A stretch of DNA of 44,654 nucleotides. Source: a virus. Made by a program: the position numbers and the translations under genes. Under the pieces are notes generated by a model that was given only the letters and a program-made list of their open reading frames with translations, searched no databases and was not told where the DNA came from. The stretch lies in the IMG/VR virus record IMGVR_UViG_3300025009_000180, positions 1-44,654 of that record; one strand, written 5' to 3'. Shown here piece by piece: positions 8,898 through 44,654 of the stretch (within the stretch, counting starts at the first letter, position 1; each line of letters begins with the position of its first letter).

Positions 8898-8941
8898 AAC
8901 TTGCAAGTTTTATGGTGTAGCTACACCTCCTGACGAGGAGG
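8898..8941 (+). promoter_or_regulatory. three adjacent RNA palindromes masking a ribosome binding site
   Basis: In the leader of the Bro-N gene lie AACTTGCAAGTT (8898-8909), GGTGTAGCTACACC (8914-8927) and CCTCCT-GACG-AGGAGG (8926-8941). The last hairpin locks the AGGAGG of the next gene in a six-base-pair stem with a tetraloop. The second and third share CC (8926-8927), so they are mutually exclusive. This looks like a translational switch. Confidence 0.7.
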
Positions 8942-8951
8942 ATATTTAAAA

Positions 8952-9581
8952 ATATTAAATAATAATGAATTAATAATTTTTAATAAAGAAGAATTTGGTG
9001 AAATAAGATGTATAAAAATTGAAAATAAATTTTATGTTGCTGGAAAAGATATTGCTAAAATATTAGGTTATAGTAATCCAACTAAAGCTATTATTCAACA
9101 TTGCAATAATATTATAAATTATAATTTAAATACAAACAGAGGAAAACAAAATACTAATATAATTTGTAATGATGATATTATTTTGTTAATACAAAAATCA
9201 CAAATAAAATCAGTAAAATATAGACAAAAAATTATTAATTGGTTAATTAAAGAAAAAATAATACAAGATAAAATAGTTTTAAAAATAAAAGACGAAATAG
9301 AATTTTTAGACATGTTAGAAAAAGTATTAAAACCTTTTAAATATACTTGTATTAGACAATATTTAGTGTGTAATAGTAAATATAAAATTGATTTATATAT
9401 AAAAGAATTAAATATTGCTATTGAATATGATGAAAGAAATCATAATGGTTATACATATAAACAACATAAAGGTAGGCAATTAAAAATAGAGAAAGAATTA
9501 GGATGTAAATTTATTAGAGTTAATGATAGTAATGATAATTTTTATAACGTAGGATTAGTTATGAAACAATTGATAGCATAG
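8952..9581 (+). CDS. Bro-N antirepressor-like protein fused to a nuclease-like domain
   Basis: A 209-residue protein counted from ATA 8952, the only start-like codon at normal distance from GAGGAGG (8935-8941). The N-terminal 90 residues match the Bro-N domain (FGEIRCIKIENKFYVAGKDI, then AKILGYSNPTKAIIQHC). The C-terminal third has KIDLYIKELNIAIEYDERNH followed by GRQLKIEKELGCKFIRVN, a PD-(D/E)XK-like pattern seen in DUF559-type and phage homing nucleases. It may be a homing nuclease guided by Bro-N or a two-domain antirepressor. Expression is probably restricted both by the hairpin hiding its ribosome binding site and by a weak AUA start. Confidence 0.7.
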   Translation: MLNNNELIIFNKEEFGEIRCIKIENKFYVAGKDIAKILGYSNPTKAIIQHCNNIINYNLNTNRGKQNTNIICNDDIILLIQKSQIKSVKYRQKIINWLIKEKIIQDKIVLKIKDEIEFLDMLEKVLKPFKYTCIRQYLVCNSKYKIDLYIKELNIAIEYDERNHNGYTYKQHKGRQLKIEKELGCKFIRVNDSNDNFYNVGLVMKQLIA

Positions 9582-10636: not shown

Positions 10637-11673
10637 ATGTATGTGGCAGAAATCAGAAAGATAAAGAATGAAAAAAATGCTTGGACAATTGTTGTTTTTT
10701 TAGGTCGGGACGAAAACGGTAAAAAAATTACCAAAAGTAAAAAATTCAATGGTACAAAACCTGAAGCGAAACAATTTGCCACTATATTTGAAACACAACT
10801 TAAACAACAAAGTGGCAATTTAGATTGTACTATGTTTTTGGAAGATTATTTAAAATATTGGCTTGAAAGTATTAATGGTGAAATAGATGAAAGAACATTA
10901 GAAACTTATACTTATCATGTCAATAGATTAATACCTATTATTGGTAAAATTAAATTAATTGATCTTAGACTTTTATTATTAAGAGATAAATTAAAACATC
11001 TTAATGATGAATTAGCACCTAAGACAATTAAAGGTATTTATGGTACTTTGCGTACAGCAATAAGGAAAGCTATAGAATGGGAATTAATCAATAAAGATGT
11101 TACCCAAGGTTTAAAAGCACCTAAGAATGTTAGGAAAGATAGACAGGTATTCGTTTAAGTGAATGTTTAGGATTAAAATGGAGAGATTTAGATTTTTCTC
11201 AAAATACCATTACTATTCAAAGGGCAATAAATACTAAAACACGTACATTAAAAGATGGCACAAAAACCTTTAATAGTTTAAGAACAATTATCTTAGACAA
11301 AGGTACAATAGAGGTTCTTAAACAACATAAAGAAAATATTAAAGTTAGACCAATTAAATTTGATGAAACTTTAATTTTCAATGAAGATGATAGACCAGTA
11401 AGAGCGTATGCAGTAAATATTTGTTTGAAGCGTATCTTAAAGAAAGTTAACTTACCTGATATGAGAGTTCACGATCTAAGACATACAGCAGCATCTATTA
11501 TGTTGGATTCAGATTTCTCACTTGCAGAGGTAGCTTATTTACTTGGTGATACCATCGAAACAATAACTAGAACGTATGCTCACAAAGTTAAGAAGAGTCT
11601 TAATATTATTGATTCGATACAGTCCAAATTAGAATCTAAGCAATCCAAACTAGATTCCGTAAAATCCAAATAA
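10637..11673 (+). pseudogene. int: tyrosine integrase, broken by an internal deletion
   Basis: The first frame (10637-11158, 173 residues) holds an N-terminal arm-binding domain and a core-binding domain (ETYTYHVNRLIPIIGKIKL...). It stops at TAA 11156 after RKDRQVFV. The catalytic domain continues in another frame from about 11145: TGIRLSECLGLKW (first catalytic Arg), HDLRHTAAS (HxxR), YLLGDTIETITRTYAHK (catalytic Tyr), to TAA 11673. The usual 50-60 residues between the core-binding domain and TGIR are absent. The junction carries a single ACAGGT that encodes part of RQV in one frame and TG in the other, as expected for a deletion between two ACAGGT copies. The integrase is therefore probably inactive. 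The start may be ATG 10637 or GTG 10643. Confidence 0.85.
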
Positions 11674-12002: not shown

Positions 12003-12467
12003 CTACTCAGCATCTACCAAAATTTCCACGCAACTGTCACACAATTTTTTACTGATATTTTCTCCATCGTACACACTTCCATACTGTCCTTGCTGATTAA
12101 TATACCATATCTGTTCATCCTCACCAAAAACATAGCCACACTTATCACACCTAACCGGAATAGGTTTGCTCTCCGCACAACAAATAGAGATTATCTTATT
12201 ACCAAATTCATCTCTATATTTAACATCTACAACCGTAGTATACAAATCATCAGTAAGATTGGTTACTAAAATGATTTCTTCGATAGGTATGTATACTCTA
12301 CAATCTTTATCATATTCATCCATCAAGATTAAATCATTCTCGGTAACTTCATAGTTAAAGTCATAATAATTAAAAGTGATTCTTGATTCTCTGGTAGTTA
12401 CTTCTACTTTATGATTAACGAATTGATTGAGGTGATTGAGATTTGGGATTGAATTTAAATTTAACAT
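12003..12467 (-). CDS. zinc-ribbon protein, paralogue A of a duplicated pair
   Basis: A 154-residue protein. The N-terminal part is beta-rich and acidic, with NLTDDLYTTVVDVKY in the middle. The C-terminal part has a zinc ribbon: RCDKCGYVFGEDEQIWYIN (Cys pair) and KKLCDSCVEIL (second pair). It is clearly homologous to the protein at 33530-34027 over its whole length (shared NLTDD(L/F)Y, CxKCG, IWxIN, YGSxYD, CDSCV). The ATG follows AAAGGAGAG. A promoter with two ATTGCTAAAC repeats precedes it, and an RHH gene lies upstream in the same direction. Function unknown; a transcription or host-takeover factor is a guess. Confidence 0.7.
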   Translation of the reverse strand: MLNLNSIPNLNHLNQFVNHKVEVTTRESRITFNYYDFNYEVTENDLILMDEYDKDCRVYIPIEEIILVTNLTDDLYTTVVDVKYRDEFGNKIISICCAESKPIPVRCDKCGYVFGEDEQIWYINQQGQYGSVYDGENISKKLCDSCVEILVDAE

Positions 12468-12523
12468 AGTTGCACTCTCCTTTAAATTATTATTTATAAA
12501 GTAAAACTAATCTCTACAAACAT

Positions 12524-12564
12524 AGTATAAAGGATTGCTAAACAATGTACAACATTGCTAAACA
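12524..12564 (-). promoter_or_regulatory. promoter with direct-repeat operator for zinc-ribbon gene A
   Basis: Read on the minus strand, TTGTAC (12552-12547), 17 bases, TATACT (12529-12524). The -35 region is straddled by two direct repeats ATTGCTAAACA (plus-strand 12534-12544 and 12554-12564, 20-base period), one of them inside the spacer. They look like operator half-sites on one DNA face. Confidence 0.65.
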
Positions 12565-12565
12565 C

Positions 12566-12595
12566 GTAAAAATAACCATATTAACTGATATGGTT
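12566..12595 (-). terminator. terminator of RHH gene A
   Basis: AACCATAT (12574-12581) pairs with ATATGGTT (12588-12595). Read on the minus strand the hairpin begins four bases after the RHH stop codon and is followed by TATTTTTA. The RHH and zinc-ribbon genes are thus separate transcripts. Confidence 0.65.
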
Positions 12596-12598
12596 AGA

Positions 12599-12784
12599 TT
12601 ATTCTCTCTTTTTGTAATAATCCTTAAGAATACCATCTTTTTCTTCTATTCCTACAATCCTTTCCATTTCTATCCTTATAAAATCAGATAAAGTACGTTT
12701 ATGATATTCCGCAATTTTTTCTAATTTATCTTTAAATCTTGGTGTTACTCTTATTCCTATTTGAACCTTTTTTGTTGTAGTCAC
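12599..12784 (-). CDS. ribbon-helix-helix DNA-binding protein A
   Basis: A 61-residue protein of the Arc/MetJ/CopG ribbon-helix-helix class: strand KVQIGIRVTPRF, helix KDKLEKIAEYHK, turn RTLSDF, helix IRIEMERIVG, then a charged tail. An in-frame ATG at 12802 lies between the -10 box and the expected transcription start, so it cannot be used; GTG 12784, seven bases after GGGAGAG, is the start. A similar 50-residue RHH protein lies at 34185-34337, also upstream of a paralogous zinc-ribbon gene. It is probably a repressor of its own and neighbouring promoters. Confidence 0.8.
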   Translation of the reverse strand: MTTTKKVQIGIRVTPRFKDKLEKIAEYHKRTLSDFIRIEMERIVGIEEKDGILKDYYKKRE

Positions 12785-12804
12785 ATAATCACTCTCCCAC
12801 ATAT

Positions 12805-20781: not shown

Positions 20782-20873
20782 TAACATAATATTAACTTCG
20801 CAAAATTAACTTTCAGCAAAAATACGTTAGAACTGGGTATCCATCTTATCTAACGTATTTTTGCTTTTTAATT
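20782..20873 (+). ncRNA. predicted small RNA of about 90 nt
   Basis: From the predicted transcription start near 20782, the sequence has no ATG-led frame and runs into a perfect 17-bp hairpin (20815-20831 with 20849-20865, loop 20832-20848) followed by TTTAATTTTAATTT. Promoter plus terminator define an orphan transcript in the 700-base gap 20298-20999. The 5' part is AU-rich and single-stranded. No homology is known to me. Targets could be host or phage mRNAs; alternatively this is only a bidirectional terminator. Confidence 0.6.
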
Positions 20874-32559: not shown

Positions 32560-32609
32560 TTATTAATTGTTCACCTACTTTTATTATTTATTTGTAATAT
32601 TAGAAAAAT

Positions 32610-32641
32610 ACAAAATAAAAAGACCATTTAAAAATGGTCTT
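32610..32641 (-). terminator. rho-independent terminator (minus strand)
   Basis: AAGACCATTT (32620-32629) pairs with AAATGGTCTT (32632-32641) and is followed on the minus strand by TTTATTTTG. It ends the transcript of the nuclease-like gene before the large tail protein. Confidence 0.75.
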
Positions 32642-32768
32642 AATTAATAATTGAAATAACATAACATAATATATTATTTATTTAATTTGCTTCCTCTAAT
32701 TGATTTTCTTTTTCTTTCTTTTTGTCTAAAACTTTCTTAATTAAAGGTATTGCTTTGGTTTTGCACAA

Positions 32769-33341
32769 TTAAAATAAAATCCATCCTTCACAACTTATAA
32801 AAGTAATATTAGAAGGCAATTTTTCAGTTATTGTTAATTTTTCACCTACAGCTATACCTTTTTTACTTTTATAAACACTAATATATCTAAGCAACTGTTT
32901 TAATGCTTTATTATCAAAATTATACTTCTTTATTTCTACTGGAAATATATCTTCTTTATATTTTACCCATGAATCAGGTAAATGTTCTTTTATAATAAAG
33001 TCTTTAGGTTGTTTTATATAACTATATTCTTTTCCCAAAATTTTGTTAATGTTATTATTAAAATATTCTTGTATTGATAATTCATTATTATTTTCAACAG
33101 AATCTTTTATTAAATAACGATATGCTATATTAGATATATTCTGAAAAGTATAATCATAATTAAAAACATTTCTTATAAATTCCATAAAAATAATTGCATC
33201 TCGATAATTATTATTTTTATTATTCCCTCTCAAACTAATTGCTAATGATAACGCTTCATACTTATCTATGATTTCATTTTCAATCTTAATATACATAGGT
33301 ATATTTTTATCATATAATATTTTAATAAGATTATTTTTCAT
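32769..33341 (-). CDS. PD-(D/E)XK nuclease-like protein
   Basis: A 190-residue protein. The N-terminal two thirds are helical and Asn/Lys-rich. The C-terminal third has DSWVKYKEDIFPVEIKKYNF, KALKQLLRYISVYKSKKGIAVGE and LPSNITFISCEGWI, which fits a PD-(D/E)XK core (D, ExK and the QLxRY helix). The ATG follows AAAGGAG. It is preceded by a promoter and a 12-codon leader. After its TAA the frame stays open for 28 more codons (32682-32768), which might be an old C-terminus. It could act in defence, homing or DNA metabolism; there is no direct evidence. Confidence 0.6.
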   Translation of the reverse strand: MKNNLIKILYDKNIPMYIKIENEIIDKYEALSLAISLRGNNKNNNYRDAIIFMEFIRNVFNYDYTFQNISNIAYRYLIKDSVENNNELSIQEYFNNNINKILGKEYSYIKQPKDFIIKEHLPDSWVKYKEDIFPVEIKKYNFDNKALKQLLRYISVYKSKKGIAVGEKLTITEKLPSNITFISCEGWILF

Positions 33342-33376
33342 AATATTTCTCCTTTTATTTATTTTTAAATAATTTA

Positions 33377-33415
33377 TTAACTAATTATAATAAAAGGACT
33401 ATCTCTAATTTTCAT
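33377..33415 (-). CDS. 12-residue leader peptide
   Basis: A tiny frame MKIRDSPFIIIS with ATG 33415 behind AAAGGTGGTG and TAA 33377-33379. It is the first frame after a consensus promoter and ends 36 bases before the nuclease-like gene. Such strong initiation signals on so short a frame suggest a leader peptide (attenuation or coupling). It could be accidental. Confidence 0.45.
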   Translation of the reverse strand: MKIRDSPFIIIS

Positions 33416-33479
33416 GTAAACACCACCTTTAGATTAATAATATAATATGCAAAGGGTACTACTTTTTTAGACTAAGCAT

Positions 33480-33508
33480 ATTATACAATATTAAAATAAA
33501 TGTGTCAA
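33480..33508 (-). promoter_or_regulatory. consensus promoter
   Basis: Minus-strand TTGACA (33508-33503), 17 bases, TATAAT (33485-33480): a perfect sigma-A consensus. It drives the leader peptide and the nuclease-like gene and lies just downstream of zinc-ribbon gene B. Confidence 0.85.
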
Positions 33509-33529
33509 GAAAAATTAGATATAAAAGGA

Positions 33530-34027
33530 TTAGAATTTACCAGTCAATTCACCAATTTCTCCAACGAATCCAGCAACACAACTATCACAAAAAGATAAAC
33601 TATTAACAATAGAGTTTTCTTCATGATCATCATAATAACTTCCATAATTTGCATTACCATTAATTCTCCAGATTGTCTCATCAGGGGTCAGTATCTCTTT
33701 ACCACATTTATAACATCTAGGATAGATAAATTTTCTTTCTAACGTACAAACGCCCACTATGTAGTCATTAGTTTTAATAGAAACCACATCAAAATAAAAA
33801 TCATCTGTCAAATTACTCACTAAATTAACCTTACTTAACTCAATAGAAGTTAACACACAATCATCATCTGATTGATCTTGAAGTTGGATATATTCATCTG
33901 TTAATTGGTAGGAGAATGAATTATAAACGTAAGTTGCTGATAAGGTGTTGTCTAACAGAGTATGAAAACTAACTTCACATTTCTTGTCATTGAATTGGTC
34001 TAATAAACTATAATTTTTCTTTTCCAT
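33530..34027 (-). CDS. zinc-ribbon protein, paralogue B of a duplicated pair
   Basis: A 165-residue paralogue of the protein at 12003-12467. It shares the acidic beta-rich N-terminal part, NLVSNLTDDFYFDVVSIK, the first Cys pair PRCYKCGKEI, ETIWRINGNANYGSYYDD and the second pair FCDSCVAGF, and ends with an extra EIGELTGKF. ATG 34027 is used; the in-frame ATG at 34045 overlaps the GGAGG site. It has its own promoter, and an RHH gene lies upstream in the same direction, as in module A. Function unknown. Confidence 0.7.
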   Translation of the reverse strand: MEKKNYSLLDQFNDKKCEVSFHTLLDNTLSATYVYNSFSYQLTDEYIQLQDQSDDDCVLTSIELSKVNLVSNLTDDFYFDVVSIKTNDYIVGVCTLERKFIYPRCYKCGKEILTPDETIWRINGNANYGSYYDDHEENSIVNSLSFCDSCVAGFVGEIGELTGKF

Positions 34028-34091
34028 AATAATAAAAACCTCCATTTAATTTAATTATAAGGCTTACAACCAAAATCAACCTTATAATCAT

Positions 34092-34120
34092 ATTATACTA
34101 GAGGAGTTAACTATAATCAA
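34092..34120 (-). promoter_or_regulatory. promoter of zinc-ribbon gene B
   Basis: Minus-strand TTGATT (34120-34115), 17 bases, TATAAT (34097-34092). Repeated ATGGTTAAC and ATGGTTGAT just upstream of the -35, and a GTTAACTAT/ATAGTTAA inverted pair, are possible operator elements. Confidence 0.7.
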
Positions 34121-34184
34121 CCATTGTTAACCATGATATAGAACGATATAGTTAATTTACAACCCAGTACCAACCATATACTAC

Positions 34185-34337
34185 TTATTTTCTTTCATTT
34201 TCTAAATATTGCATTAAAATATACCTAACTAAATCAGGTAGTGTCATTCCTTTTAATTCTGCTAATATTTCATATTCACTTTTAAATTTATTAGTTACCC
34301 TAACAGATATTAGAGCTTTTTGTTGTCTTTTTTCCAT
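34185..34337 (-). CDS. ribbon-helix-helix DNA-binding protein B
   Basis: A 50-residue Arc/CopG-type protein: strand QKALISVRVTNKF, helix KSEYEILAELKG, turn MTLPDL, helix VRYILMQYLENERK. ATG 34337 follows AGGAGTGTG. The pattern ISVRVTxKFK...TLxDxxR...ME matches RHH protein A (IGIRVTPRFK...TLSDFIRIEME), so they are paralogues. It is encoded upstream of zinc-ribbon gene B. A 15-base palindrome lies in its promoter, suggesting autorepression. Confidence 0.8.
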   Translation of the reverse strand: MEKRQQKALISVRVTNKFKSEYEILAELKGMTLPDLVRYILMQYLENERK

Positions 34338-34363
34338 TTTAATCACACTCCTATCCACAATAT

Positions 34364-34392
34364 ATTATATACTAAGTATATGTATTTTTCAA
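34364..34392 (-). promoter_or_regulatory. proximal promoter and operator palindrome of RHH gene B
   Basis: Minus-strand TTGAAA (34392-34387), 17 bases, TATAAT (34369-34364). The palindrome ATATACT-A-AGTATAT (34367-34381) fills the spacer, an ideal place for repressor binding by the RHH product. Confidence 0.75.
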
Positions 34393-34416
34393 AAGTATAG
34401 GAATGAATCTACAATT

Positions 34417-34445
34417 ATATTAACATACTTATCACACAAAGTCAA
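34417..34445 (-). promoter_or_regulatory. distal promoter of RHH gene B
   Basis: Minus-strand TTGACT (34445-34440), 17 bases, TAATAT (34422-34417). It matches the position of the distal promoter in module A, and the upstream 23-base A-rich stretch (34444-34466) is identical to that in module A (12928-12950). Confidence 0.6.
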
Positions 34446-34549
34446 TATATTTATTTTTATATTCTATTCATTTTAAAATAAAATTAGTAAATATCAATTT
34501 AAATTTTCTCAATTATTTAAAATAAAACCTTTCAATTAAATCCAACATA

Positions 34550-34558
34550 TGCTAAAAT
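34550..34558 (+). promoter_or_regulatory. extended -10 promoter of the putative toxin
   Basis: TGCTAAAAT (34550-34558) is an extended -10 element; the -35 is poor. The transcript would start near 34565, with a 5' leader of about 100 bases before the toxin frame. Confidence 0.5.
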
Positions 34559-34664
34559 ATACTCATATAAGCCAATCTTGTAACCTTAATATTCATGTGA
34601 ATTTATGCGAGATTCTTCTATATTCTTTATTCTCATAAGTTCATATGAAAGGAGGGTGGAGGTC

Positions 34665-34766
34665 ATACAAGATTTCTTTAACAATTTATTTTCAACATTA
34701 ATTGGACAATTGTGTTTTTATTACATAATTAGTTCCATAAAAAGAAGAAAGAGTGATCTTAAATAA
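34665..34766 (+). CDS. putative type I toxin, small membrane peptide
   Basis: A 33-residue frame on the strand opposite to the tail genes: QDFFNNLFSTLIGQLCFYY, then IISSIKRR and the charged end KSDLK. A hydrophobic span plus basic tail is typical of type I toxins of Firmicutes and their phages (Fst-like and clostridial types). AAAGGAGG (34648-34655) is followed nine bases later by ATA 34665, the likely start; in-frame GTG 34656 overlaps the ribosome binding site. Leader bases AATCTTGTA (34576-34584) can pair with TACAAGATT at the start codon, which would hide it. A convergent RNA is antisense to the start region through a 21-nt repeat. Assignment is by layout, not homology. Confidence 0.6.
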   Translation: MQDFFNNLFSTLIGQLCFYYIISSIKRRKSDLK

Positions 34767-34851
34767 TCACTCTTGGTTTGTACTTTGAGACATCTGACCA
34801 TGTCTCATTTTTAATTTTATCATACAAGATTTCTTTAACACTAATAATTTT
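34738..34851 (-). ncRNA. putative antitoxin RNA
   Basis: Predicted transcript of about 110 nt. The promoter is TTGCAT (34886-34881), 17 bases, TAAAAT (34863-34858), giving a start near 34851. It contains the antisense 21-mer (34840-34820), the hairpin GAGACAT/ATGTCTC, and a terminator AAGAGTGAT/ATCACTCTT (34749-34774) followed by TCTTCTTTTT. It overlaps the toxin mRNA at the 3' end and pairs with its start region through the repeat. No frame is encoded. Confidence 0.65.
34787..34819 (+). terminator. terminator of the toxin mRNA
   Basis: GAGACAT (34787-34793) pairs with ATGTCTC (34800-34806) and is followed on the plus strand by ATTTTTAATTTTA. Convergent to the antitoxin terminator at 34749-34774, so the two RNAs overlap at their 3' ends. 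Confidence 0.65.
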
Positions 34852-34857
34852 ATTAAT

Positions 34858-34886
34858 ATTTTACCACATATCATATTTAAATGCAA
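34858..34886 (-). promoter_or_regulatory. promoter of the putative antitoxin RNA
   Basis: Minus-strand TTGCAT, 17-base spacer, TAAAAT. Spacing is optimal and both boxes are close to consensus. Confidence 0.65.
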
Positions 34887-34910
34887 GGGGGGTTTATTTA
34901 GAAATATATA

Positions 34911-35036
34911 TTATATTAATATTTTAATACCTAATTTATTAACAATTTGTTCCACAGTTAATCCAGCATTAAACATTTGCTGGATTTCTTTTTTATTTTC
35001 TTTGGTTAAAGTTACGTTACATAAAATTTTAATCAT
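34911..35036 (-). CDS. 41-residue HTH-like peptide
   Basis: A small frame MIKILCNVTLTKENKKEIQQ then MFNAGLTVEQIVNKLGIKILI, with ATG 35036 behind AGGTGGTG. The second half looks like a helix-turn-helix unit (AGLTVEQIVNKLGI). It lies between Dit and the antitoxin promoter. It could regulate the neighbouring loci; otherwise unknown. Confidence 0.55.
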   Translation of the reverse strand: MIKILCNVTLTKENKKEIQQMFNAGLTVEQIVNKLGIKILI

Positions 35037-35080
35037 ATAAAAACACCACCTAATTTTTTTTATTTTAATATTCTATTAAA

Positions 35081-35839
35081 TTAATTTAGTAACTGGAATT
35101 TATAGCGAAATTGAATTGTACATGAACCAACAATACTCAGATTATTAATACTATATTTTAAGAAATATAAATAATTATCGTTGAAATTTCCAAATCTACT
35201 TATATTCAAAGAACTGATAATATCCTCATTTTCACAATCTAAATAAATTTCCTCACCATTTTCCAACCCAGTAAATTTTAATTCAATTCCAGAATTTGTA
35301 TTATTTACTATGCTAAGATCGCCATCTCCAACTTTAACAATTTCCATTTCAGGATATAAATCCACATCACCAATATTTTCAAACTCTATAGTCCCACTAT
35401 CAGTAATTGTATATACTTCAGACAAATACTCACTTGTATAAATATAAGGTGATTTACACAATAATTGAAACTTCACATATCCATTTATTCCAGTATGAAA
35501 TAAACTAGGATCACCTTGATACATCACATAATATATCTTATCTAAATCATCTGAAAATATCATAGGACAATAATAATTTTGATTAAACAATCTTCCCAAT
35601 GCACGTAATTTATCTGAAGTTATATCATCTTCAAAAGCCAAAGTTACATCTAATACTCTTGGAGAAGGTTTTTTTGTTTGATAATATGGTTCATCTCTAT
35701 CTCTAATATTTGTTGTTATAATTTCTCTACTTGGTAAAAATTGTTCTTCATATAATCCACTTTCAACACTACAATTTATAATTCCATAATCTGTTGAATT
35801 TTCTCCGTTAAATGTAAAATATAAACTTGATTTATACAT
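35081..35839 (-). CDS. distal tail protein (Dit)
   Basis: A 252-residue siphovirus distal tail component: YFTFNGENSTDYGIINCSVESG, PSREIITTNIRDRDEPYYQTKKPSPRVLDVTLAFED, LRALGRLFNQNYYCPMIFSDD, IYYVMYQGDPSLFHTG and GYVKFQLLCKSPYIYT are typical of the N-terminal ring domain. The C-terminal part is a galectin-like beta domain. It forms the hexameric hub between tail tube and tail tip. Its position directly after the tape measure gene is canonical. ATG 35839 is preceded by AAGGTGGTGA at a long distance (13 bases). Confidence 0.9.
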   Translation of the reverse strand: MYKSSLYFTFNGENSTDYGIINCSVESGLYEEQFLPSREIITTNIRDRDEPYYQTKKPSPRVLDVTLAFEDDITSDKLRALGRLFNQNYYCPMIFSDDLDKIYYVMYQGDPSLFHTGINGYVKFQLLCKSPYIYTSEYLSEVYTITDSGTIEFENIGDVDLYPEMEIVKVGDGDLSIVNNTNSGIELKFTGLENGEEIYLDCENEDIISSLNISRFGNFNDNYLYFLKYSINNLSIVGSCTIQFRYKFQLLN

Positions 35840-35918: not shown

Positions 35919-38900
35919 TTATATTTTTTTCCCCATACTTTTCATTCCATTAACAATTTCATTAAATACAGTTTTACCTCCATTTTTATCGCCTGTTACA
36001 TTATCAATCCTTAAGTTTAAATTGTACACAGTGTCACTACTTGCTATTGCATTTGCAGGAGTAAAGTTGCTTAAAATATTACTCATATTCATATTAGGTA
36101 AATTAAAATTATTCATCAAATTAGTTGGGAAAGATTTAACTACATCTAAAAAATTAGGTAAATAATCTTTTAATTTGAGCATTGCAGATGTTTGATGTGC
36201 ATCCAATACCATTTCTGGTTCTTCTGGAGTGCCATCTAACCAATGGTATCCTGTTTCTGTATTTAATCCACCAGATTTATACTTTCTACCACTAGTAGCA
36301 TGTCCAGTATATTCCTTACCAGTCATTGAACTTATGAATTTACCTTCTACAACAGAATATACATATATATCTTTGGTAGTATTATATAATATAGGGTCTA
36401 ATATATCTGAATCAGTTTCACCATGATAATATTTATCATCTATTATCAAATATTCACTTAAAGATTGCGGATTAATATTATTAGTATTTAAATCAGAAGG
36501 GTTATTGTTATTATTACTAGTACTAGAAGCATTAGAATATTCAAGTACACTAGGAATAGTAGGTGTATTAATACGAATATCACCAATACTTTTAAATGCA
36601 GTTGCGATATTATTAACATAAGTTGTTACTTCAGTATCAAATTTAACTAATCCTGCTGTAACATTACCATACCAAGTATTAGTTATTTCATCAAAAGTAG
36701 CAGTACCATTAGTTACTGATTCAATTATTTTATCCCATTTTTCTGATTCTAATGTCCAAGCATCATCTAAATTAGTTTTTCTTAATTCTATATCATCGTT
36801 AAATGAATCTTTTTGATCATTAATTGCTTGTTTCTGCAATTCTCTACTTCTATCTAATTTAAATTCTTCTATTTCAATATCTTTCTCATTTAACTCTTTA
36901 GTTAAGTCATTTCTTTTAGATTTTGCTTCATAACTATTATTTAACAATGTTTCATCATATTTTCTTTGAATATCATTACGATCTTTTTGTTTCTTTAGTA
37001 ATTCCTTATCATAATCTTCTGTACCTTGGGAAGTATCTAAATTTTTAAGTTTTGCTTCAACATTTTTATTATACGCATCTAATTCATCATCCAAATTCTT
37101 AATCTGCTCATCGTGATATTTACTAGCAACATCTTTTAGCTCATTTAAACCATCTATTGCTTTATCAAAATTAAATTGCTCTGCTTCTTGATTTAAATTA
37201 TAAAAACTAGTTACAGATTCTTGTAAATCTGAATTCCATTGTTCTAATAATTCATTTCTTTTTTCATCACTTAAACCAGGATTATTAATATCAATATTTT
37301 TTATCTTATCTTTTATTGTATTAATTTCACCTAATGTTACAATTGCTTTTGCTAATGTATTTTTTAACTTACCTTCAACATCATCTTCATCTATTAAACT
37401 TCCTGCAAAATCTAAATCAGATAATTCTGTTTTAAATTTTTTAATAGAATCATCAAAGTTTCTAATTGCTTTTTCAGATATTATATTTTCTAACTTATCT
37501 TTTGTAGATACAATCTCTAAATCAACATCTTGCATAGCATCAGTAAATTGAGTCACTAATGTTCCAGCAGATATTTTTTGTTCTTCTGTTGAATTAGAGT
37601 CATTTAATACAGCATTCCATTTGTCTATCTCATTTTGCAATGTATATTTCTTTGTAAAGAGATAATCCTTAATATCGTTGGTGTATTTATCTAATTGTGC
37701 ATATTCATCATCAGTATTTATATCACCTAATAATGATATATTATTATTTAGATTGCTAATTGGATTATCTAATTGTGATAATTTAATATCTGCATAAGTA
37801 TTAGATAGTTCAATAATTTTATTTTGATTATCCTCAATATCTTGAGTTAGTTTAGTTATCTCAGCATCTAAATCTATCCAAGCGGTACTAGACTTATCAG
37901 ATATCGCATCTCTTTTAGCAATCAATCCATTAATTTCTGCTTGTTTTTGTGCAATACCTTCTAATGCATCACCTTGTTCCACAAAACTATCGGCAATTGA
38001 CCAATCTGTGAAAAAGTTTTTAATTTTCTCATTAGTTTCTTTATAAGCAGTAGATGTCTTATCTAAACCTACTAATTCGTTTTGTAAATCAGAATAATCT
38101 CTTGCTAATACTTTTACTAATGATGAATTATTTTGTAACTCTTCATTATATTCATTCCATTTATCAGGATTTTTTACTTTATCTGTTTTTGCTAATTTAT
38201 CTTGCAATGAAATATAATCAGTTACTTTTTGTTTAAGTGATTTATTATCATCTTCATATGAATAATTTCCATCTGTACCTGAAAGCATATTCATATTATC
38301 TTTAGTATTACTAATATCAAAAGTGAATATATCTTTATATTCTTTTTGCAATATTTTTAAATTATTCTTTGCTTCTTTTATTGATTCTTTATTACCATTA
38401 CTTAATGCATTATTATAAGTTCTGATTGAATCATTAACTATAGTTAAATCTTTCTCATCTCCAAAATTAGTAAGTTCATCTATTTTCTTTCCGCTATTTA
38501 TTGACCTTAATAAATTATCATTAGTTTTTTTGTTATTTATAGCTGTTTGATTATCTTTTCCTAATTCTTTATATTTAGATAAATCAGTATTTGCTATAGT
38601 AACATTTGCTTTATTATCTTCTAGTATTTTCCTATTTGCTATATAATCTTCTAAATTTTTATTTGCTTCTTTATATTCTTTAGAATCCACTCCATATTTT
38701 GCTTTAGCATTATCTAGTGAAGTTATTAAAGTTGATTCACCATCTATATACAATGCATCTTTTAATTCCTTTCCAACTTCTAATACACCTGTTAAAACAT
38801 TATTTACTTTTTCTAATTTGTCAATATAATTATCAGGAGAAGTAGAATTAAGAATATCTAAATCAAATAAATTTTTATCAATATTATATAGTTTTCTAGT

Positions 38901-41900
38901 TTCTTCAATCTGCTTATCTATCAAACTAAATTCATAATCATATCTATCTTTAATTGTTGATTTTAATTTAGTTTCATAAGATAATACTAAATCATAATAT
39001 TTTTTTGCTTCTGCATTTGCTTCATTGTATAAATCTGAACCATTTTTATGTCCTTCTCTTTCTTTTATCCATTTATCAACATTTGCACTTGCTGTTTCTA
39101 TTGCTTTGTTTATTAATTCTATATTTAAACTATATTGAAATAATGACTTTTCTTCTAAAGTCATATTTCCTACACCACTAGCATAACCAGGAATAGGGAT
39201 AATTTTATTACCAGCAAGTATTTCTTCAGTTTCTTTGTTAGGAATTACTTTTGTACCTGTAGGCAATGTTGTAAATTCTGCACCATTATTACCTGAAATA
39301 GCAACTTTTCCATCAGGATAAATTAACAATTCACGACCTTTTTCTGATATTACAGCCATTCCACCAGGATGTGAATTAGTACCAGTTGCACTTCCACCTA
39401 TTTTTTCACCATAATTGTTCCAATTTCCACCACTATCATTTGAATCTTCACTACTAGATGAACTTTTAACTTTAATACTACTAATAATATCTTTTACTGC
39501 ATCTGCAATTTTATTAAATCCTGATTTAGTTATTTCAAGAATATTATTCATTCCACTTTGATAAATAATATTTTGATCATTAAAATGATTTATGGTTTCA
39601 TCATTAGTAATTTTTAAATTTTCACTAGTTACATTTAACTGTTCATTCTGATTATCTTTTTGCATAGTGATAATATCAGAATTAAATTGATCATATATTT
39701 TCTTTCTTTCTTCCTGATTACCATTTTCAGATTCTATTAGTTTATTAACATCTGACATTTTCTGTTCATTAGTTAAATTACCATTATTTAATATGATATT
39801 AATATTAGATAAGAAATTTTGATAATCTAAAAATAGACTTTTCATGGTATCTAAATGAGTGATTAATTGTTGTTGTTCTAAACTTTGTTGCTCTTTTTGC
39901 TGTTCAATCATTTGGTCGCCAATAGTTTTTTCTATATCTAGTTTATCATTTTGATATTCTTCTTCAATATCTAAACCATATTTTTGTTCATCTGATAATT
40001 GTGCTTTAGATTTTGCCAAACTTTCTTTATCAACAGTAAATGCAGTAGTTAACTCTATACCTGAAACAGAGCCTCCACTAAGCATATCAATATTATGCTC
40101 AACTGCTTCAATTTGATTGTTTATTTCTTGCATTGCTTCATCTGTTTGAGATGCAAGTTTATCTAATTTAATTTTATCTAATTGCTTCTGATATTCAGCA
40201 TTTGCTTTAGTATTTTCTTTTACTGCATTTTTAAGATAAATAATTCTATCTGCATATATTTGTGCAGTTTTTGCATCTGTAGTATGAGTATTAGATAATT
40301 TTTCTATTTCATCATTATATTGTCTAGTTAATTTACTAGATGCAGAAATTTGATTGTTTATTAGTGTTAATTTTGTATTGAAATCAGTGCCAGAGAGCAA
40401 ATCAAAATTATATTTAAGATTAGATAATTTATTGTTTAATGGAGTTAACTGTTTATCAAATGCATCAAATTGAGATTGTATTATTGATAGAGAATTAGAG
40501 GATATGGTATTGTTTAGATCGATGTATTCTTTTTTTAATTCTGATAATTGCTGTTTTTTATTGTCTAAATCAATTCCTTGCAATTTACCAGAGTTAATTT
40601 CTGCTGTAATAAGATCAATATTTGCTTTCTTTAGTGTTAATATATTAGATAATGAATTATTCTGTAGAGATAATTCATTTCTATATTGTGATGATGTCTG
40701 AACTAAAGATTCTATTTTTGATTTTGATATTTCTATTGAGTTATTGTACTCTTTTATTCTTTCATCATTCTGATTTAATCCAAAATCTAATAATTCATTA
40801 TCTTTAGAATTAACATTACTTTTTGCTTCAGCAATTTGAGTAGGTAATAAATAGTCTCTTTTTTCTATTAATTTAGCTAAATAATCCTTGTCAAACCATT
40901 TACCTTCATCAATTGCTTGTTCAATATTTGCAATGGCTTGTTCTGTTTGCGCTAATTCTGCTTCACGTTGTTTTAATACTTTTTCATTATTATTTCTTTG
41001 TACCTGTACTTCATTTTTATATGCATATGAAGTTTTAGACATAGTTTCAGATAATGCTTTAGATAAATTGTTTTTATCTTCAAATATTTTTACTATATTA
41101 TCAGATTCATTCCATAAATCATCATACCATTCCTTAGATGCATTAATATTTTCTTTTTCTAATTTTAATATTTCTGCATTAATTTCTTCTTGATGTTTAA
41201 CTCTATCTTCTAATATTTTTTCATATGATAATTCTGATTTAGATAAATTAACAGAAGTGGGGGATAGACTGTATTTTTTAGTATTTTCATAAACATCTTT
41301 AGCATAATTTCCAGTTGTACTACCACCATATTTCTCTAAACCTTGTGTTAAATCTCCACCAGATTTTTGTATTCTATCTACAAGATATTCTACTCCACGT
41401 TGAATATTTAATTCTGGATCAAATGCATTGCCACCACCTACTTCTTTCCAAGTATTACCAGTTATTGTTATAAAACCATTACAAGATGCTATCCATGTTT
41501 TATTTTCAACAGAAGGACACCAAACTGGTTGAGATTCAACTAAATCGTAATTTAATCTAAAATTTGAAGCATAAGTAGTTTTTCTTTTTTGAACAAAACA
41601 TGAATATTGTTTTTTACAATGATATTCATTTCCTAAAATATTATATATTCCTTCTTCTCTGTAAGAATTAATTGTAGATAATTTACCGAGTAGAAATAAT
41701 AATGTTTGTACGTCAATAATTCTATCATAATCAGATTGTTTAAAAGATTCCCAACCTTTATTGCTAATATTACCATCAGATTCTAAAAGTCCTTGCCACA
41801 ATATTTCTGCTTGCTCTTTAGTAATAGATAAAAGTAATTCCATTGACAATCTTTTTTTACCATCTATAAAAATATATTTACTTAATTTAAGTGCTTCTTC

Positions 41901-44654
41901 TCCAGTAATTATCCATCTATACATTCCAGTTTCTTGATTATAATATTCAATATGTTTTAATTCTGAATATTTTAATTCACTTCTGTATTTTTCTACATAT
42001 TTTTTCTGATATAAATCAATATGTCTTCCTCTATTAGTAATAGAACCATCACCAAAAATTGCTCCTAATAAATAAATATACTTATCTGGAATTATTTTTT
42101 CTTTTGAAAATTCATAATCTGAAACTCTTATAATGTAATTTTGACTAGCATTTTTAATATCTGAAGTTTCTTTTAATTTTATTTTGTTATTCCAATATTC
42201 TTTAACAACCCATTTATGATTTGTTGTTACTGTAAAATCAAAACTCTTATTATGCATACGAACTAATTGACCAGGATTTTCATAATAAGCAACAGCTTCT
42301 ACAGATTGCCATTCCATAATATTTTTATCTATATTATAAGATAAAATATATTCTCCTATATCAATTTCATTATAATATTTCCAACCATTTTTAGTTAAAC
42401 ACTTAGTATCAATAGTAACACATGCAGGCATAAATTGCATTAATCCCATTGCACCAGAATCAGTATTAACTATATCTGGATTAAAATCAGATTCGACATC
42501 TATCATACCAGCAATTAAAGCAGGAGTAATACCTAATTTTTGTGCATTTACATTATTTGCTACTGCTTTATTTATTAAGTCTGATAAATTATTAGGAATA
42601 TTTGATACACCATTAATATTGATTGTTGTAGGAGTAGTATTAACATCATTTGTCAATAAATCATAAGGATTCATTGCTTGATTATTAGAATTTTTTATTC
42701 CATAATGTAAATGTGTCGCTCCACCTTTTGCGTTACCACTATCTCCAACATATCCAATTGTTTGACCTGCTAATATTTCTTGACCCACACCTAGTATTTC
42801 ACTAGGATCTGTATTCATATGAGCATAATAATGTTTATTACCTTGAGGATCGGAAATAGTTACACCCCAACCACCTTTAGCACCAGTATTTCCAGCACTA
42901 AGAACTTTACCAGATGTAGTTGAATGTATTTCAGTACCTCTATCAGCAAATATATCAATTCCTTCATGTTTACGAGCACCACCATCTCTTGATGCACCAA
43001 AAGAATCTTTTAATTCTTTGCCTGGAATTGGATTTGGCAATTTGCCATTAGTTGTTGAGAAATTAGATGAAGCAGTTATTAATTTACCATACTCTTCACT
43101 TTGCCCTTTAAGATATGCTATTGCTTTTCTTCTTTCTTCGGATTCTGCATGAATAGCATCTCTACGTTCTTGTGAACCTTTTACTGCATTATCTGAGATT
43201 GATTCTAATTTAGTTATTTCATTATTATATTTTTTTATTTCATTTGTTGTTTTTTCCCATGCTAATGCTTCTGCTGTTTTTGCATTGGTTGTGGAGTTAG
43301 AGGAATCTTTAGCTTTACCAAAATTAGGAGAATTTATTGCTGCTTTTGCTTCTGATGCTTTTTCTTTTAATTCAACATACCCATTTATTTTATTCCGCAT
43401 TGCTGATATTTCATTTGAATCTTTTATATCACTAGAATATCCTCTTTCTTTTTTCCACTCTTCAAATAATTTTTGAGCATCATCCATATTTTTTAGATCA
43501 TCTAATCTACTAGCAACATAAACATCAGTAATATCTTTTTTTGCTTGATCTAATTTGCTAAATAATTCTGTATTATCTATTTCACCAGATTGGTATTGAG
43601 TATATAAAGAATTATTTATTTTTAGATATGCTTCTTGTATTTGTAATAATGTATTTAATTTTTCAATTTCTAAATCATAATCATCTAATCTATTTTGTGT
43701 TTGAGTGGAAACAATTTTTGCTTTTTCTATTTGTAAATTAATTGCACTAGTTGCTTCTTCAATTTGTTTATTTTTTAATTTATTTAATTCATCAACATTT
43801 AATACTAAAACGCCATTAACATTTTCTATTGCGCCATATAATTCATCATTTTTCTCTGCATTTTTTAATGCTTCAATAGCGGCATCATTATTAGATTCTT
43901 TAGATTTTTCTAATAATTGATTGTAGAATTCTATTTTTTCTGATGTGTCAGATGTTGTTTTTTGTATTGATTGGATAGCTTTGTCAAAATTAAAAACAGA
44001 ATCTACTTTATCTTGAATATTTGGTAATTCTAATAAATCACTTTTTAATTTTTCTAAAGTCTTTGGAGCAATAATATCTAAATCTTTAAATACTTTTTCT
44101 AATAATTCAATAGATGATTTTTGTTTATTAGTTAAAGTATCATAATCAATAGAGCCTTTTTTATAATCCTCTAATCCTTTATTATAATCAGCAAATACAT
44201 TAGGTAATTCTGTTTTACTTATTTTGGTTAATATATCATTAAAATCAATATTTTTTAGTTCATCGGAATTATTCAATATGTCTCTAATAAATAAAGTTAA
44301 ACTTGCAGAATCTAGATTTTTAAATTTATCAAATTCAGAATACAATGCTTGAGCACCAGAAGATAATTTTTCAAAATCTTTTCTTGATTCTTCTGTTAAA
44401 GATTTTATCTGTTCTTTTAAAAATTCTATTTTTTCTTCATCTGTATCACTAAAGAAAATTAAATTTTCAAAACCATGTCCCATTCCTGCTAACGTGCTTC
44501 TATTGTTTTTTAAATTTAATAAATCATTTAATTCTTTATTATATTTTTCTATTTTACTTTTATTTTTAGTTAAATTTTCATAATCATTATCACTTGTATC
44601 AATAAAATTGTTTTTTAATTCAGTTTTTTTATCATCTATTTCTTGTTGTTTTAG
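35919..44654 (-). CDS. tape measure protein with M23 and lysozyme domains and an intein (partial)
   Basis: The frame stays open to the right edge (no stop through 44654; residues LKQQEIDDKKTELKNNF precede the ATG at 44483), so the N-terminus is outside and at least 2911 codons are present. Long coiled coils make up most of it. Near 42.7-43.0 kb is an M23 metallopeptidase domain (HEGID, THLHYG). Next comes a lytic transglycosylase domain (ALIAGMIDVESDF, GAMGLMQFMPA | TWKEVGGGNAFDPELNI) split by an intein. Downstream are SHPGGMAVISEKGRELLIYPDGK and EEPEMVLDAHQTSAML, common in tape measures. It sets tail length and digests the wall during DNA injection. Confidence 0.9.
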   Translation of the reverse strand, partial: LKQQEIDDKKTELKNNFIDTSDNDYENLTKNKSKIEKYNKELNDLLNLKNNRSTLAGMGHGFENLIFFSDTDEEKIEFLKEQIKSLTEESRKDFEKLSSGAQALYSEFDKFKNLDSASLTLFIRDILNNSDELKNIDFNDILTKISKTELPNVFADYNKGLEDYKKGSIDYDTLTNKQKSSIELLEKVFKDLDIIAPKTLEKLKSDLLELPNIQDKVDSVFNFDKAIQSIQKTTSDTSEKIEFYNQLLEKSKESNNDAAIEALKNAEKNDELYGAIENVNGVLVLNVDELNKLKNKQIEEATSAINLQIEKAKIVSTQTQNRLDDYDLEIEKLNTLLQIQEAYLKINNSLYTQYQSGEIDNTELFSKLDQAKKDITDVYVASRLDDLKNMDDAQKLFEEWKKERGYSSDIKDSNEISAMRNKINGYVELKEKASEAKAAINSPNFGKAKDSSNSTTNAKTAEALAWEKTTNEIKKYNNEITKLESISDNAVKGSQERRDAIHAESEERRKAIAYLKGQSEEYGKLITASSNFSTTNGKLPNPIPGKELKDSFGASRDGGARKHEGIDIFADRGTEIHSTTSGKVLSAGNTGAKGGWGVTISDPQGNKHYYAHMNTDPSEILGVGQEILAGQTIGYVGDSGNAKGGATHLHYGIKNSNNQAMNPYDLLTNDVNTTPTTININGVSNIPNNLSDLINKAVANNVNAQKLGITPALIAGMIDVESDFNPDIVNTDSGAMGLMQFMPACVTIDTKCLTKNGWKYYNEIDIGEYILSYNIDKNIMEWQSVEAVAYYENPGQLVRMHNKSFDFTVTTNHKWVVKEYWNNKIKLKETSDIKNASQNYIIRVSDYEFSKEKIIPDKYIYLLGAIFGDGSITNRGRHIDLYQKKYVEKYRSELKYSELKHIEYYNQETGMYRWIITGEEALKLSKYIFIDGKKRLSMELLLSITKEQAEILWQGLLESDGNISNKGWESFKQSDYDRIIDVQTLLFLLGKLSTINSYREEGIYNILGNEYHCKKQYSCFVQKRKTTYASNFRLNYDLVESQPVWCPSVENKTWIASCNGFITITGNTWKEVGGGNAFDPELNIQRGVEYLVDRIQKSGGDLTQGLEKYGGSTTGNYAKDVYENTKKYSLSPTSVNLSKSELSYEKILEDRVKHQEEINAEILKLEKENINASKEWYDDLWNESDNIVKIFEDKNNLSKALSETMSKTSYAYKNEVQVQRNNNEKVLKQREAELAQTEQAIANIEQAIDEGKWFDKDYLAKLIEKRDYLLPTQIAEAKSNVNSKDNELLDFGLNQNDERIKEYNNSIEISKSKIESLVQTSSQYRNELSLQNNSLSNILTLKKANIDLITAEINSGKLQGIDLDNKKQQLSELKKEYIDLNNTISSNSLSIIQSQFDAFDKQLTPLNNKLSNLKYNFDLLSGTDFNTKLTLINNQISASSKLTRQYNDEIEKLSNTHTTDAKTAQIYADRIIYLKNAVKENTKANAEYQKQLDKIKLDKLASQTDEAMQEINNQIEAVEHNIDMLSGGSVSGIELTTAFTVDKESLAKSKAQLSDEQKYGLDIEEEYQNDKLDIEKTIGDQMIEQQKEQQSLEQQQLITHLDTMKSLFLDYQNFLSNINIILNNGNLTNEQKMSDVNKLIESENGNQEERKKIYDQFNSDIITMQKDNQNEQLNVTSENLKITNDETINHFNDQNIIYQSGMNNILEITKSGFNKIADAVKDIISSIKVKSSSSSEDSNDSGGNWNNYGEKIGGSATGTNSHPGGMAVISEKGRELLIYPDGKVAISGNNGAEFTTLPTGTKVIPNKETEEILAGNKIIPIPGYASGVGNMTLEEKSLFQYSLNIELINKAIETASANVDKWIKEREGHKNGSDLYNEANAEAKKYYDLVLSYETKLKSTIKDRYDYEFSLIDKQIEETRKLYNIDKNLFDLDILNSTSPDNYIDKLEKVNNVLTGVLEVGKELKDALYIDGESTLITSLDNAKAKYGVDSKEYKEANKNLEDYIANRKILEDNKANVTIANTDLSKYKELGKDNQTAINNKKTNDNLLRSINSGKKIDELTNFGDEKDLTIVNDSIRTYNNALSNGNKESIKEAKNNLKILQKEYKDIFTFDISNTKDNMNMLSGTDGNYSYEDDNKSLKQKVTDYISLQDKLAKTDKVKNPDKWNEYNEELQNNSSLVKVLARDYSDLQNELVGLDKTSTAYKETNEKIKNFFTDWSIADSFVEQGDALEGIAQKQAEINGLIAKRDAISDKSSTAWIDLDAEITKLTQDIEDNQNKIIELSNTYADIKLSQLDNPISNLNNNISLLGDINTDDEYAQLDKYTNDIKDYLFTKKYTLQNEIDKWNAVLNDSNSTEEQKISAGTLVTQFTDAMQDVDLEIVSTKDKLENIISEKAIRNFDDSIKKFKTELSDLDFAGSLIDEDDVEGKLKNTLAKAIVTLGEINTIKDKIKNIDINNPGLSDEKRNELLEQWNSDLQESVTSFYNLNQEAEQFNFDKAIDGLNELKDVASKYHDEQIKNLDDELDAYNKNVEAKLKNLDTSQGTEDYDKELLKKQKDRNDIQRKYDETLLNNSYEAKSKRNDLTKELNEKDIEIEEFKLDRSRELQKQAINDQKDSFNDDIELRKTNLDDAWTLESEKWDKIIESVTNGTATFDEITNTWYGNVTAGLVKFDTEVTTYVNNIATAFKSIGDIRINTPTIPSVLEYSNASSTSNNNNNPSDLNTNNINPQSLSEYLIIDDKYYHGETDSDILDPILYNTTKDIYVYSVVEGKFISSMTGKEYTGHATSGRKYKSGGLNTETGYHWLDGTPEEPEMVLDAHQTSAMLKLKDYLPNFLDVVKSFPTNLMNNFNLPNMNMSNILSNFTPANAIASSDTVYNLNLRIDNVTGDKNGGKTVFNEIVNGMKSMGKKI
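41454..42422 (-). mobile_element. intein with LAGLIDADG endonuclease in the tape measure protein
   Basis: A 323-residue insertion splits the lysozyme motif QFMPA|TW. It begins with Cys (CVTIDTKCLTKNGWKYYNEI, block A), has block B TVTTNHKWVV, two LAGLIDADG-like helices (YLLGAIFGDGSI and LWQGLLESDGNI), and ends VWCPSVENKTWIASCNGFITITGN followed by Thr (+1). The penultimate residue is Gly rather than His. This ending (ITGN|T) is known from other phage inteins. Length is an exact multiple of three, and the host protein is restored in frame. It probably splices and carries homing activity. Confidence 0.9.

What the first reader, a model, noticed from the sequence alone, without database searches (positions are those of the whole stretch)
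34550..34886. Type I toxin-antitoxin-like locus in a phage tail region
A plus-strand hydrophobic 33-residue peptide is bracketed by an extended -10 promoter and a terminator. A convergent minus-strand RNA has a good promoter (TTGCAT-17-TAAAAT) and a strong terminator. The 21 bases over the toxin start (34663-34683) recur exactly at 34820-34840, so the minus-strand RNA is a perfect antisense to the toxin initiation site as well as overlapping its 3' end. The toxin leader can also self-pair with the start (AATCTTGTA with TACAAGATT). Direct repeats plus convergent shared 3' region follow the logic of the pAD1 par (Fst) locus, but the peptide is not obviously Fst. This could be a new family that stabilises the extrachromosomal phage genome or aborts competing infections.
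Basis: partly seen in the sequence, partly recalled or inferred. Interest (0 to 1): 0.9.

Follow-up and report, generated by a model that had tools for sequence, protein, structure and literature searches.

The report
Phage toxin gene silenced by antisense RNA
A phage of a low-GC bacterium carries what looks like a tiny membrane-toxin gene kept silent by a small antisense RNA, laid out like the enterococcal par addiction module but with a peptide that does not match par's toxin family and that seems to start at the unusual codon AUA.

Summary
A 21-nt exact direct repeat (34663-34683, 34820-34840) covers the start of a small hydrophobic, Lys/Arg-tailed ORF and the 5' part of a convergent antisense RNA. 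None of 20,000 shuffles gave a repeat longer than 17. Two shared hairpins lie between the copies. Repeat + SD + two-way terminators occurred once in the window and in 0 of 127 other loci (1.50 Mb).

Of 30 Fst (par) control loci, 24 have a >=10-nt start-region repeat with its second copy 149-203 bases downstream; here it is 157. The toxin mRNA leader is predicted to hide SD and start. I read the locus as a par-type type I toxin-antitoxin module.

The module sits in a 2.5-kb block between two tail genes; in 8 of 8 related loci read, the next tail-position gene follows directly. Transcription and toxicity are untested.

The parts
34530..34558 (+). putative toxin-mRNA promoter: TTTCAA (34530-34535), 17-nt spacer, extended -10 TGcTAAAAT (34550-34558); inferred start near 34565
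   Evidence: sequence; 76% identical over 33 nt to the antisense promoter region (I1); not picked up by the consensus scan
34565..34818 (+). inferred RNA I (toxin mRNA), about 254 nt
   Evidence: inferred from promoter and terminator; fold -66.3 kcal/mol, z -5.2 for 34562-34818, 0 of 300 shuffles as low
34574..34587 (+). leader anti-start/anti-SD segment: AAUCUUGUA pairs with UACAAGAUU 34666-34674, ACCUU with AGGGU 34653-34657
   Evidence: mean pair probabilities 0.63 and 0.59; 3 of 300 shuffles of the segment pair as well (mean of shuffles 0.31 against 0.75 observed)
34592..34649 (+). 16-bp leader stem-loop (two G-U pairs) ending at the SD
   Evidence: pair probability 0.97; 34588-34655 z -3.3; leader+start 34562-34685 z -3.6 on + strand, -1.4 on - strand; 4 of 224 control windows of the same length are as low as -3.6
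34567..34573 (+). 5' end of RNA I pairing with the linker between the hairpins (34775-34781)
   Evidence: mean pair probability 1.00, or 0.80 if transcription starts at 34568; 1 of 300 shuffles of the first 12 nt equal, but shuffles average 0.54
34648..34655 (+). Shine-Dalgarno AAAGGAGG
34665..34766 (+). putative toxin ORF, ATA start, 33 aa IQDFFNNLFSTLIGQLCFYYIISSIKRRKSDLK; 36 aa if GTG 34656
   Evidence: best 17-residue hydropathy 1.42
34663..34683 (+). direct repeat copy 1, over the toxin start
34749..34774 (.). hairpin 1; terminator of the antisense RNA; overlaps the toxin's last codons and stop; RNA I loop CUUAAAUA begins with YUNR
34786..34807 (.). hairpin 2; terminator of RNA I; RNA I loop CUGACC begins with YUNR
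34820..34840 (.). direct repeat copy 2, in the 5' part of the antisense RNA
34736..34851 (-). inferred RNA II (antitoxin), about 116 nt; 83 nt complementary to the 3' end of RNA I plus 21 nt complementary to the toxin start
   Evidence: inferred; its 5' part alone pairs with the toxin start at mean probability 0.98, shuffled versions 0.02 on average and 0.35 at most
34858..34886 (-). putative antisense promoter TTGCAT-17-TAAAAT, extended -10
   Evidence: not picked up by the consensus scan
32560..35080 (.). block between distal tail protein (Dit) and YomG-like tail gene that holds the module
   Evidence: in 8 of 8 related loci read, the next tail-position gene follows Dit within about 150 bases

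Best explanation
A par-type type I toxin-antitoxin module carried as cargo by a phage of the SPbeta-like kind. RNA I encodes a 33-36 residue peptide with one hydrophobic segment and a Lys/Arg-rich tail, presumably a membrane toxin. Its leader folds back so that the SD and start are partly hidden. RNA II, made from the opposite strand, shares both terminal hairpins with RNA I and carries a second copy of the start-site sequence in antisense. It would meet RNA I at the terminator loops and then clamp the start with 21 base pairs, blocking ribosome loading. If the phage genome is lost, the antitoxin RNA decays first and the toxin is made, which favours keeping the phage. Shown: sequence anatomy, its rarity, and its match to Fst loci. 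Predicted: folds and pairings. Inferred: transcripts, AUA initiation, toxicity, differential stability, phage-maintenance role.
For: Repeat far beyond chance. Repeat + SD + two-way terminators: 1 hit in the window, 0 in 127 background loci/1.50 Mb at every repeat length tried, 10-16. Positive control: 24 of 30 located Fst loci (32 tried, 2 not located) carry a >=10-nt start-region repeat with the second copy 149-203 nt downstream, against 166 of 2637 random segments (6%) with one that long; here 21 nt, 157 nt. Terminators on both strands. Leader fold over SD and start, z -3.6 on the + strand and -1.4 on the - strand, 5' end pairing. The RNA II 5' part alone pairs with the start at 0.98. The small frame lies behind an 8-nt SD. 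Type I modules contribute to prophage maintenance in C. difficile (PMC7699646, start of abstract and passages), and SPbeta itself carries two (PMC6563280 section 3).
Against: No convincing homologue, so no conservation test. No canonical start at proper spacing. Promoters not above chance by scan. The detector found 3-4 of 30 Fst loci at repeat lengths 10-14 and 0 at 16, so it is specific but insensitive. Fold evidence is moderate: 4 of 224 control windows fold as well relative to shuffles, start-helix probability is about 0.6, and shuffled 5' ends still pair with the 3' part at 0.54 on average. With full RNA II the nested folding program shows only the 3' duplex and no pairing at the start. 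Transcription and toxicity unknown.
Confidence: 0.78

Rival explanations
1. Decayed par-type module: the architecture is genuine, but the start codon has mutated (ATG to ATA or similar) and the toxin is no longer made.
For: No ATG/GTG/TTG at 4-12 nt from the SD.
Against: Both repeat copies read ATA, so a recent single loss in the toxin copy is unlikely unless gene conversion followed; the frame is intact; AUA/AUU starts with extended SDs have been mapped in a Firmicute at roughly 10-30% of AUG (PMC13009471, passages); 11 of 30 Fst controls have only GTG/TTG starts; a Bro-N gene of the same phage also has AUA as its only listed start at SD distance.
Confidence: 0.12
2. A convergent-terminator intergenic region with a regulatory antisense RNA but no toxin; the peptide frame is incidental and the repeat is a leftover of a local duplication.
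For: No convincing peptide or locus homologue; AT-rich DNA gives hydrophobic frames easily.
Against: The repeat falls on the SD-start region and just inside the inferred antisense RNA; the combination is absent from 1.50 Mb of background and its layout matches Fst loci; the leader fold is stronger on the coding strand.
Confidence: 0.07
3. A type I module used against other phages (abortive infection or superinfection exclusion) rather than for phage maintenance.
For: It sits in a block beside uncharacterised genes, a usual place for such genes (general knowledge).
Against: No PADLOC match for the peptide or for the four neighbouring block proteins scanned; nothing in the sequence speaks for it over maintenance.
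Confidence: 0.15

Closest known systems
par locus of pAD1 (RNA I/RNA II, Fst toxin) and chromosomal par homologues
   Same: Convergent RNAs sharing terminator hairpins, direct repeat at the toxin start and in the antisense 5' part, leader structures over the 5' end and SD, 33-aa toxin with a charged tail, GUG start in pAD1 (PMC7472228, passages); repeat layout and frequent non-AUG starts in 30 loci measured here.
   Different: Peptide has no PxxxG and no Fst profile match; one 21-nt repeat, where 24 of 30 controls have 10-14 nt; two hairpins instead of one bidirectional terminator; [quoted passage not shown] AUA start; RNA II about 116 nt rather than about 40 nt as the review gives it.
Prophage type I modules of Clostridioides difficile (CD0956.2/RCd10, CD0977.1/RCd11 and others)
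   Same: Small hydrophobic N-terminus, Lys-rich C-terminus, AGGAGG SD, antisense antitoxin, prophage location (PMC7699646, passages).
   Different: The three genes described in the passage have ATG starts 7-8 nt from the SD; 'direct repeat' does not occur in the main text of either paper searched; no C. difficile phage record matched the peptide at E <= 10.
SPbeta modules bsrG/SR4 and yonT/SR6
   Same: Type I modules on the phage group whose tail genes this phage resembles.
   Different: No start-site repeat is mentioned in the section read; neither peptide was compared here.

Membership tests
Fst (par) type I toxin-antitoxin family | Convergent RNAs with shared intrinsic terminator | tested here: met
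   By sequence only: terminator-like hairpins for both strands between the repeat copies; transcripts themselves not tested
Fst (par) type I toxin-antitoxin family | Direct repeat at the toxin start and in the antisense 5' region | tested here: met
   21 nt, spacing 157; 24 of 30 Fst controls >=10 nt at 149-203
Fst (par) type I toxin-antitoxin family | Intramolecular structures hiding SD and 5' end of RNA I | tested here: met
   By prediction only: 16-bp stem 0.97, SD helix 0.59, start helix 0.63, 5' end helix 1.00; leader z -3.6, reached by 4 of 224 control windows; not measured in the Fst controls
Fst (par) type I toxin-antitoxin family | YUNR U-turn in an RNA I terminator loop | tested here: met
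   CUUA and CUGA begin the two loops (sequence); short motif, weak evidence, and not universal in the family
Fst (par) type I toxin-antitoxin family | Fst peptide: PxxxG(C) in the hydrophobic part, Trp (Val in pAD1), Pfam PF13955 | tested here: not met
   No P or W in the peptide; no PF13955 match at E <= 10. Own profile of 26 Fst peptides: 6.2 bits, 1 of 5000 shuffles as high, but a chance frame of the window scores 8.2; BLASTP to one Fst peptide E 0.004 for that single pair
Fst (par) type I toxin-antitoxin family | Peptide toxic, RNA II protective, RNA II less stable | not testable with these tools
   needs experiment
Clostridioides difficile prophage type I toxins | Sequence similarity to CD0956.2-type toxins | tested here: inconclusive
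   tblastn of phage records at E <= 10 gave only 11 Pseudomonas records; 36 aa is too short for a firm negative
Type I toxin-antitoxin in general | Small hydrophobic peptide with charged C-terminus plus antisense RNA | tested here: met
   Anatomy only; expression untested

The most novel reading that the evidence does not exclude
The par regulatory chassis (start-site repeat, shared terminators, self-hidden start) has been coupled to a toxin that is not Fst, and that toxin starts at AUA, so its synthesis is gated by start-codon strength as well as by antisense RNA. Regulation and toxin would then be separable modules in type I systems.
Probability: 0.3. Interest if true: 0.68.

Novelty: new variant of a known kind. 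Interest (0 to 1): 0.5.

Why it matters
If true, the layout of par can be recognised without its toxin, by a start-site repeat plus two-way terminators, which would allow searches for type I modules whose peptides are too short and too diverged to find by homology. It would also give an apparent case of a type I toxin starting at AUA, a simple extra brake on a lethal product, and place a par-type module in a tail-gene cargo slot of an SPbeta-like phage.

Tried and rejected
These gave weak hits (best E 0.0038): 31 loci, of which 24 were read were not; the match was not properly located in L118 and L122. In those read I saw none with an SD, a start and a repeat of 12 or more bases in place. One, L113, has a basic-tailed hydrophobic frame, but it begins at a stop codon without a start and has no such repeat. 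I judge them chance. The Acinetobacter DNA match (50 bases) I left as a chance AT-rich match because it covers 12% of the query; not followed further. Near-identical DNA: none for window 19655-44654 in phage records or window 1-24000 in plasmids. Relatives of neighbouring proteins in viral contigs: 1 for Dit, none for the YomG-like gene, the tape-measure part or the 171-aa protein.

Hok-like activation by 3' processing: a first run suggested that cutting the 3' end opens the start helix (0.30); other cut points gave 0.63-0.67, so dropped.

'AUA starts are a trait of this phage': strong SDs before frames of 60+ codons with only AUA/AUU/AUC/CUG at 4-12 nt are 6 of 31 in the window and 26 of 209 in 66 low-GC loci. 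I take that as no clear difference, so only the single Bro-N case is used.

True Fst homology: N-terminal likeness (LFSTLIG here, LFSTIIG in L147) did not stand against window control frames.

Host: not settled. Nearest proteins point to Bacillota (MTase 61% to Paenibacillus, 58% to Clostridium gasigenes; Dit matched in 5 of 225 genomes of the order of C. gasigenes, best 41%; 0 of 198 in another order).

Full report
WHAT IS THERE. The window is a 44,654-base virus record, 25.1% G+C, whose tail genes resemble those of SPbeta-like phages. The distal tail protein (Dit, 35081-35839) matches 64 phage records; among the 30 listed, SPbeta-group phages are 33-36% and an Alicyclobacillus phage 37% identical. 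The next tail gene has a YomG N-terminal domain. Between them lies a 2.5-kb block with the locus under study.

The repeat TCATACAAGATTTCTTTAACA is exact at 34663-34683 and 34820-34840. In 400-nt windows stepped along the whole window no other exact repeat is as long (next 17), and 20,000 dinucleotide-preserving shuffles of 34550-34886 never gave more than 17. Copy 1 begins after 7 intervening bases downstream of the SD AAAGGAGG and covers the first codons of the small frame; copy 2 begins about 11 bases inside the inferred antisense RNA.

Between the copies are two hairpins, 34749-34774 and 34786-34807. The first has a T-tract on the minus strand and the second on the plus strand; 3 terminator-like sites were found in 1 kb against 0.2 expected. 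The outer promoters are extended -10 sites with weak -35 boxes; the scan does not list them and finds no enrichment (14 sites, 10.0 +/- 3.3 expected), so they remain an inference. They resemble each other over 33 nt (76%).

START CODON. By SD spacing (9 nt) this is the only start-like codon. GTG 34656 abuts the SD and ATG 34605 has none. AUA and AUU starts behind extended SDs have been mapped in Staphylococcus aureus at about 10-30% of AUG efficiency (PMC13009471, passages). Of 30 Fst control loci, 11 have only GTG or TTG within 0-20 nt of the SD, 17 have ATG, and in 2 no start was listed because the SD was not placed. In this same phage a Bro-N gene (Pfam E 3e-12) has ATA 8952 as its only listed start at SD distance. 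Across the window such cases are not clearly commoner than in other low-GC loci (6 of 31 against 26 of 209). A search for papers holding both 'type I toxin' and 'AUA start codon' returned none. Both repeat copies carry the same ATA, which argues against a fresh loss of the start in the toxin copy alone.

FOLDING. The leader of RNA I forms a 16-bp stem ending at the SD (probability 0.97). ACCUU pairs with AGGGU of the SD region (0.59), AAUCUUGUA with the start (0.63), and the 5' end pairs with the linker between the hairpins (1.00; 0.80 for the latest start tried). The leader fold has z -3.6 on the plus strand and -1.4 on the minus strand; 4 of 224 control windows of the same length, both strands, are as low. 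Shuffling the 5' end, the leader segment or the linker reproduces the pairing in 1, 3 and 2 of 300 trials, though shuffled 5' ends still pair at 0.54 on average. The 5' part of RNA II alone pairs with the toxin start at 0.98, shuffled versions 0.02 on average, 0.35 at most. With full RNA II the nested program shows only the 3' duplex and nothing at the start. By my reading of the geometry the two contacts cross in the concatenated order, so that program cannot show both.

POSITIVE CONTROL. A Pfam Fst_toxin search of the order of an Enterococcus ureilyticus genome gave matches in 75 of 295 genomes. I read the 30 loci kept by that call and two; 30 of the 32 could be placed. A repeat of >=10 nt from the start region to a point 149-203 nt downstream is present in 24 of 30 (14 of 30 with >=12 nt), against 166 of 2637 random segments with a repeat of >=10 nt. 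Some of these loci are near copies of each other (26 distinct peptides). The present locus (21 nt, 157 nt) falls inside that spacing. A detector asking for repeat, SD and terminators on both strands gave one hit in the window and none in 127 background loci (1,495,635 bases, both strands), but only 3-4 of the 30 Fst loci at repeat lengths 10-14 and none at 16: specific, not sensitive. An earlier version with repeats of 16 or more over 124 loci found only this locus, seen twice because one locus is an excerpt of the window.

TOXIN. The peptide IQDFFNNLFSTLIGQLCFYYIISSIKRRKSDLK has one hydrophobic stretch (17-residue mean 1.42) and a basic tail. It has no PxxxG and no Trp, marks of Fst in the Fst/Ldr review (pAD1 Fst itself has Val for Trp; PMC7472228, passages), and no match to PF13955. 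A profile from 26 Fst peptides gives 6.2 bits; 1 of 5000 shuffles does as well, but among 626 frames of the window one scores 8.2 and another 6.1. So it works like par but cannot be filed as Fst. No convincing homologue was found (see Tried and rejected); the tools warn that near relatives may be left out.

CONTEXT. In all 8 the gene after Dit follows within about 150 bases. In 7 that gene is YomG-like by tblastn or by name; in KKP_3916 it is an unnamed gene. The block in the window holds a 41-aa frame, the module, a small protein with weak Arc/CopG-like matches, a 171-aa protein and a 190-aa protein. The antisense strand is the tail-gene strand, so late transcription would itself run antisense to the toxin; this is an inference.

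FUNCTION. By analogy with prophage modules of C. difficile, reported to contribute to prophage maintenance (PMC7699646, start of abstract and passages), and with par itself, I think phage maintenance most likely. Exclusion of other phages is a rival without evidence here. Transcription, translation and toxicity are untested.

Noticed in passing
8936-9581 (+): Bro-N domain gene of 209 codons whose only listed start at SD distance is ATA 8952 (AGGAGG 8936-8941); a caller limited to ATG/GTG/TTG begins at TTG 9183, inside the domain.
   Followed up: partly
12003-12802 and 33530-34358 (-): Duplicated cassette: small DNA-binding-like (Arc/CopG-like, weak matches) protein plus a CxxC-bearing 154/171-aa protein (38% identical; small proteins); no relatives of the latter found in phage records or viral contigs.
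   Followed up: partly
34364-34445 (-): Promoter-like sites before the small Arc/CopG-like gene (TTGACT-17-TAATAT with TG; TTGAAA-17-TATAAT), with AT-rich dyads by eye, suggesting autoregulation.
   Followed up: no
10637-11673 (+): Integrase-like gene split between two reading frames near 11150 in this assembly (named from sequence by eye, no family search was run on it).
   Followed up: no
35919-44483 (-): The tape-measure gene seems to hold an intein with a homing-endonuclease-like part inside its lytic transglycosylase region (motifs recalled, not tested by a call).
   Followed up: no
20815-20865: Long, very stable hairpin followed by T's (fold z -8.4 for the 124-nt window from 20801; sequence), probably a terminator.
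   Followed up: no
1996-2970 and 7035-7790 (+): Phage-borne carbamoyltransferase of the aspartate/ornithine family and a ThyX-like thymidylate synthase.
   Followed up: no
L128, L139, L141, L144: Four Fst loci whose ATG lies only 3 nt from a perfect SD while an in-frame ATT lies at 9 nt: their start codon may be misassigned.
   Followed up: no
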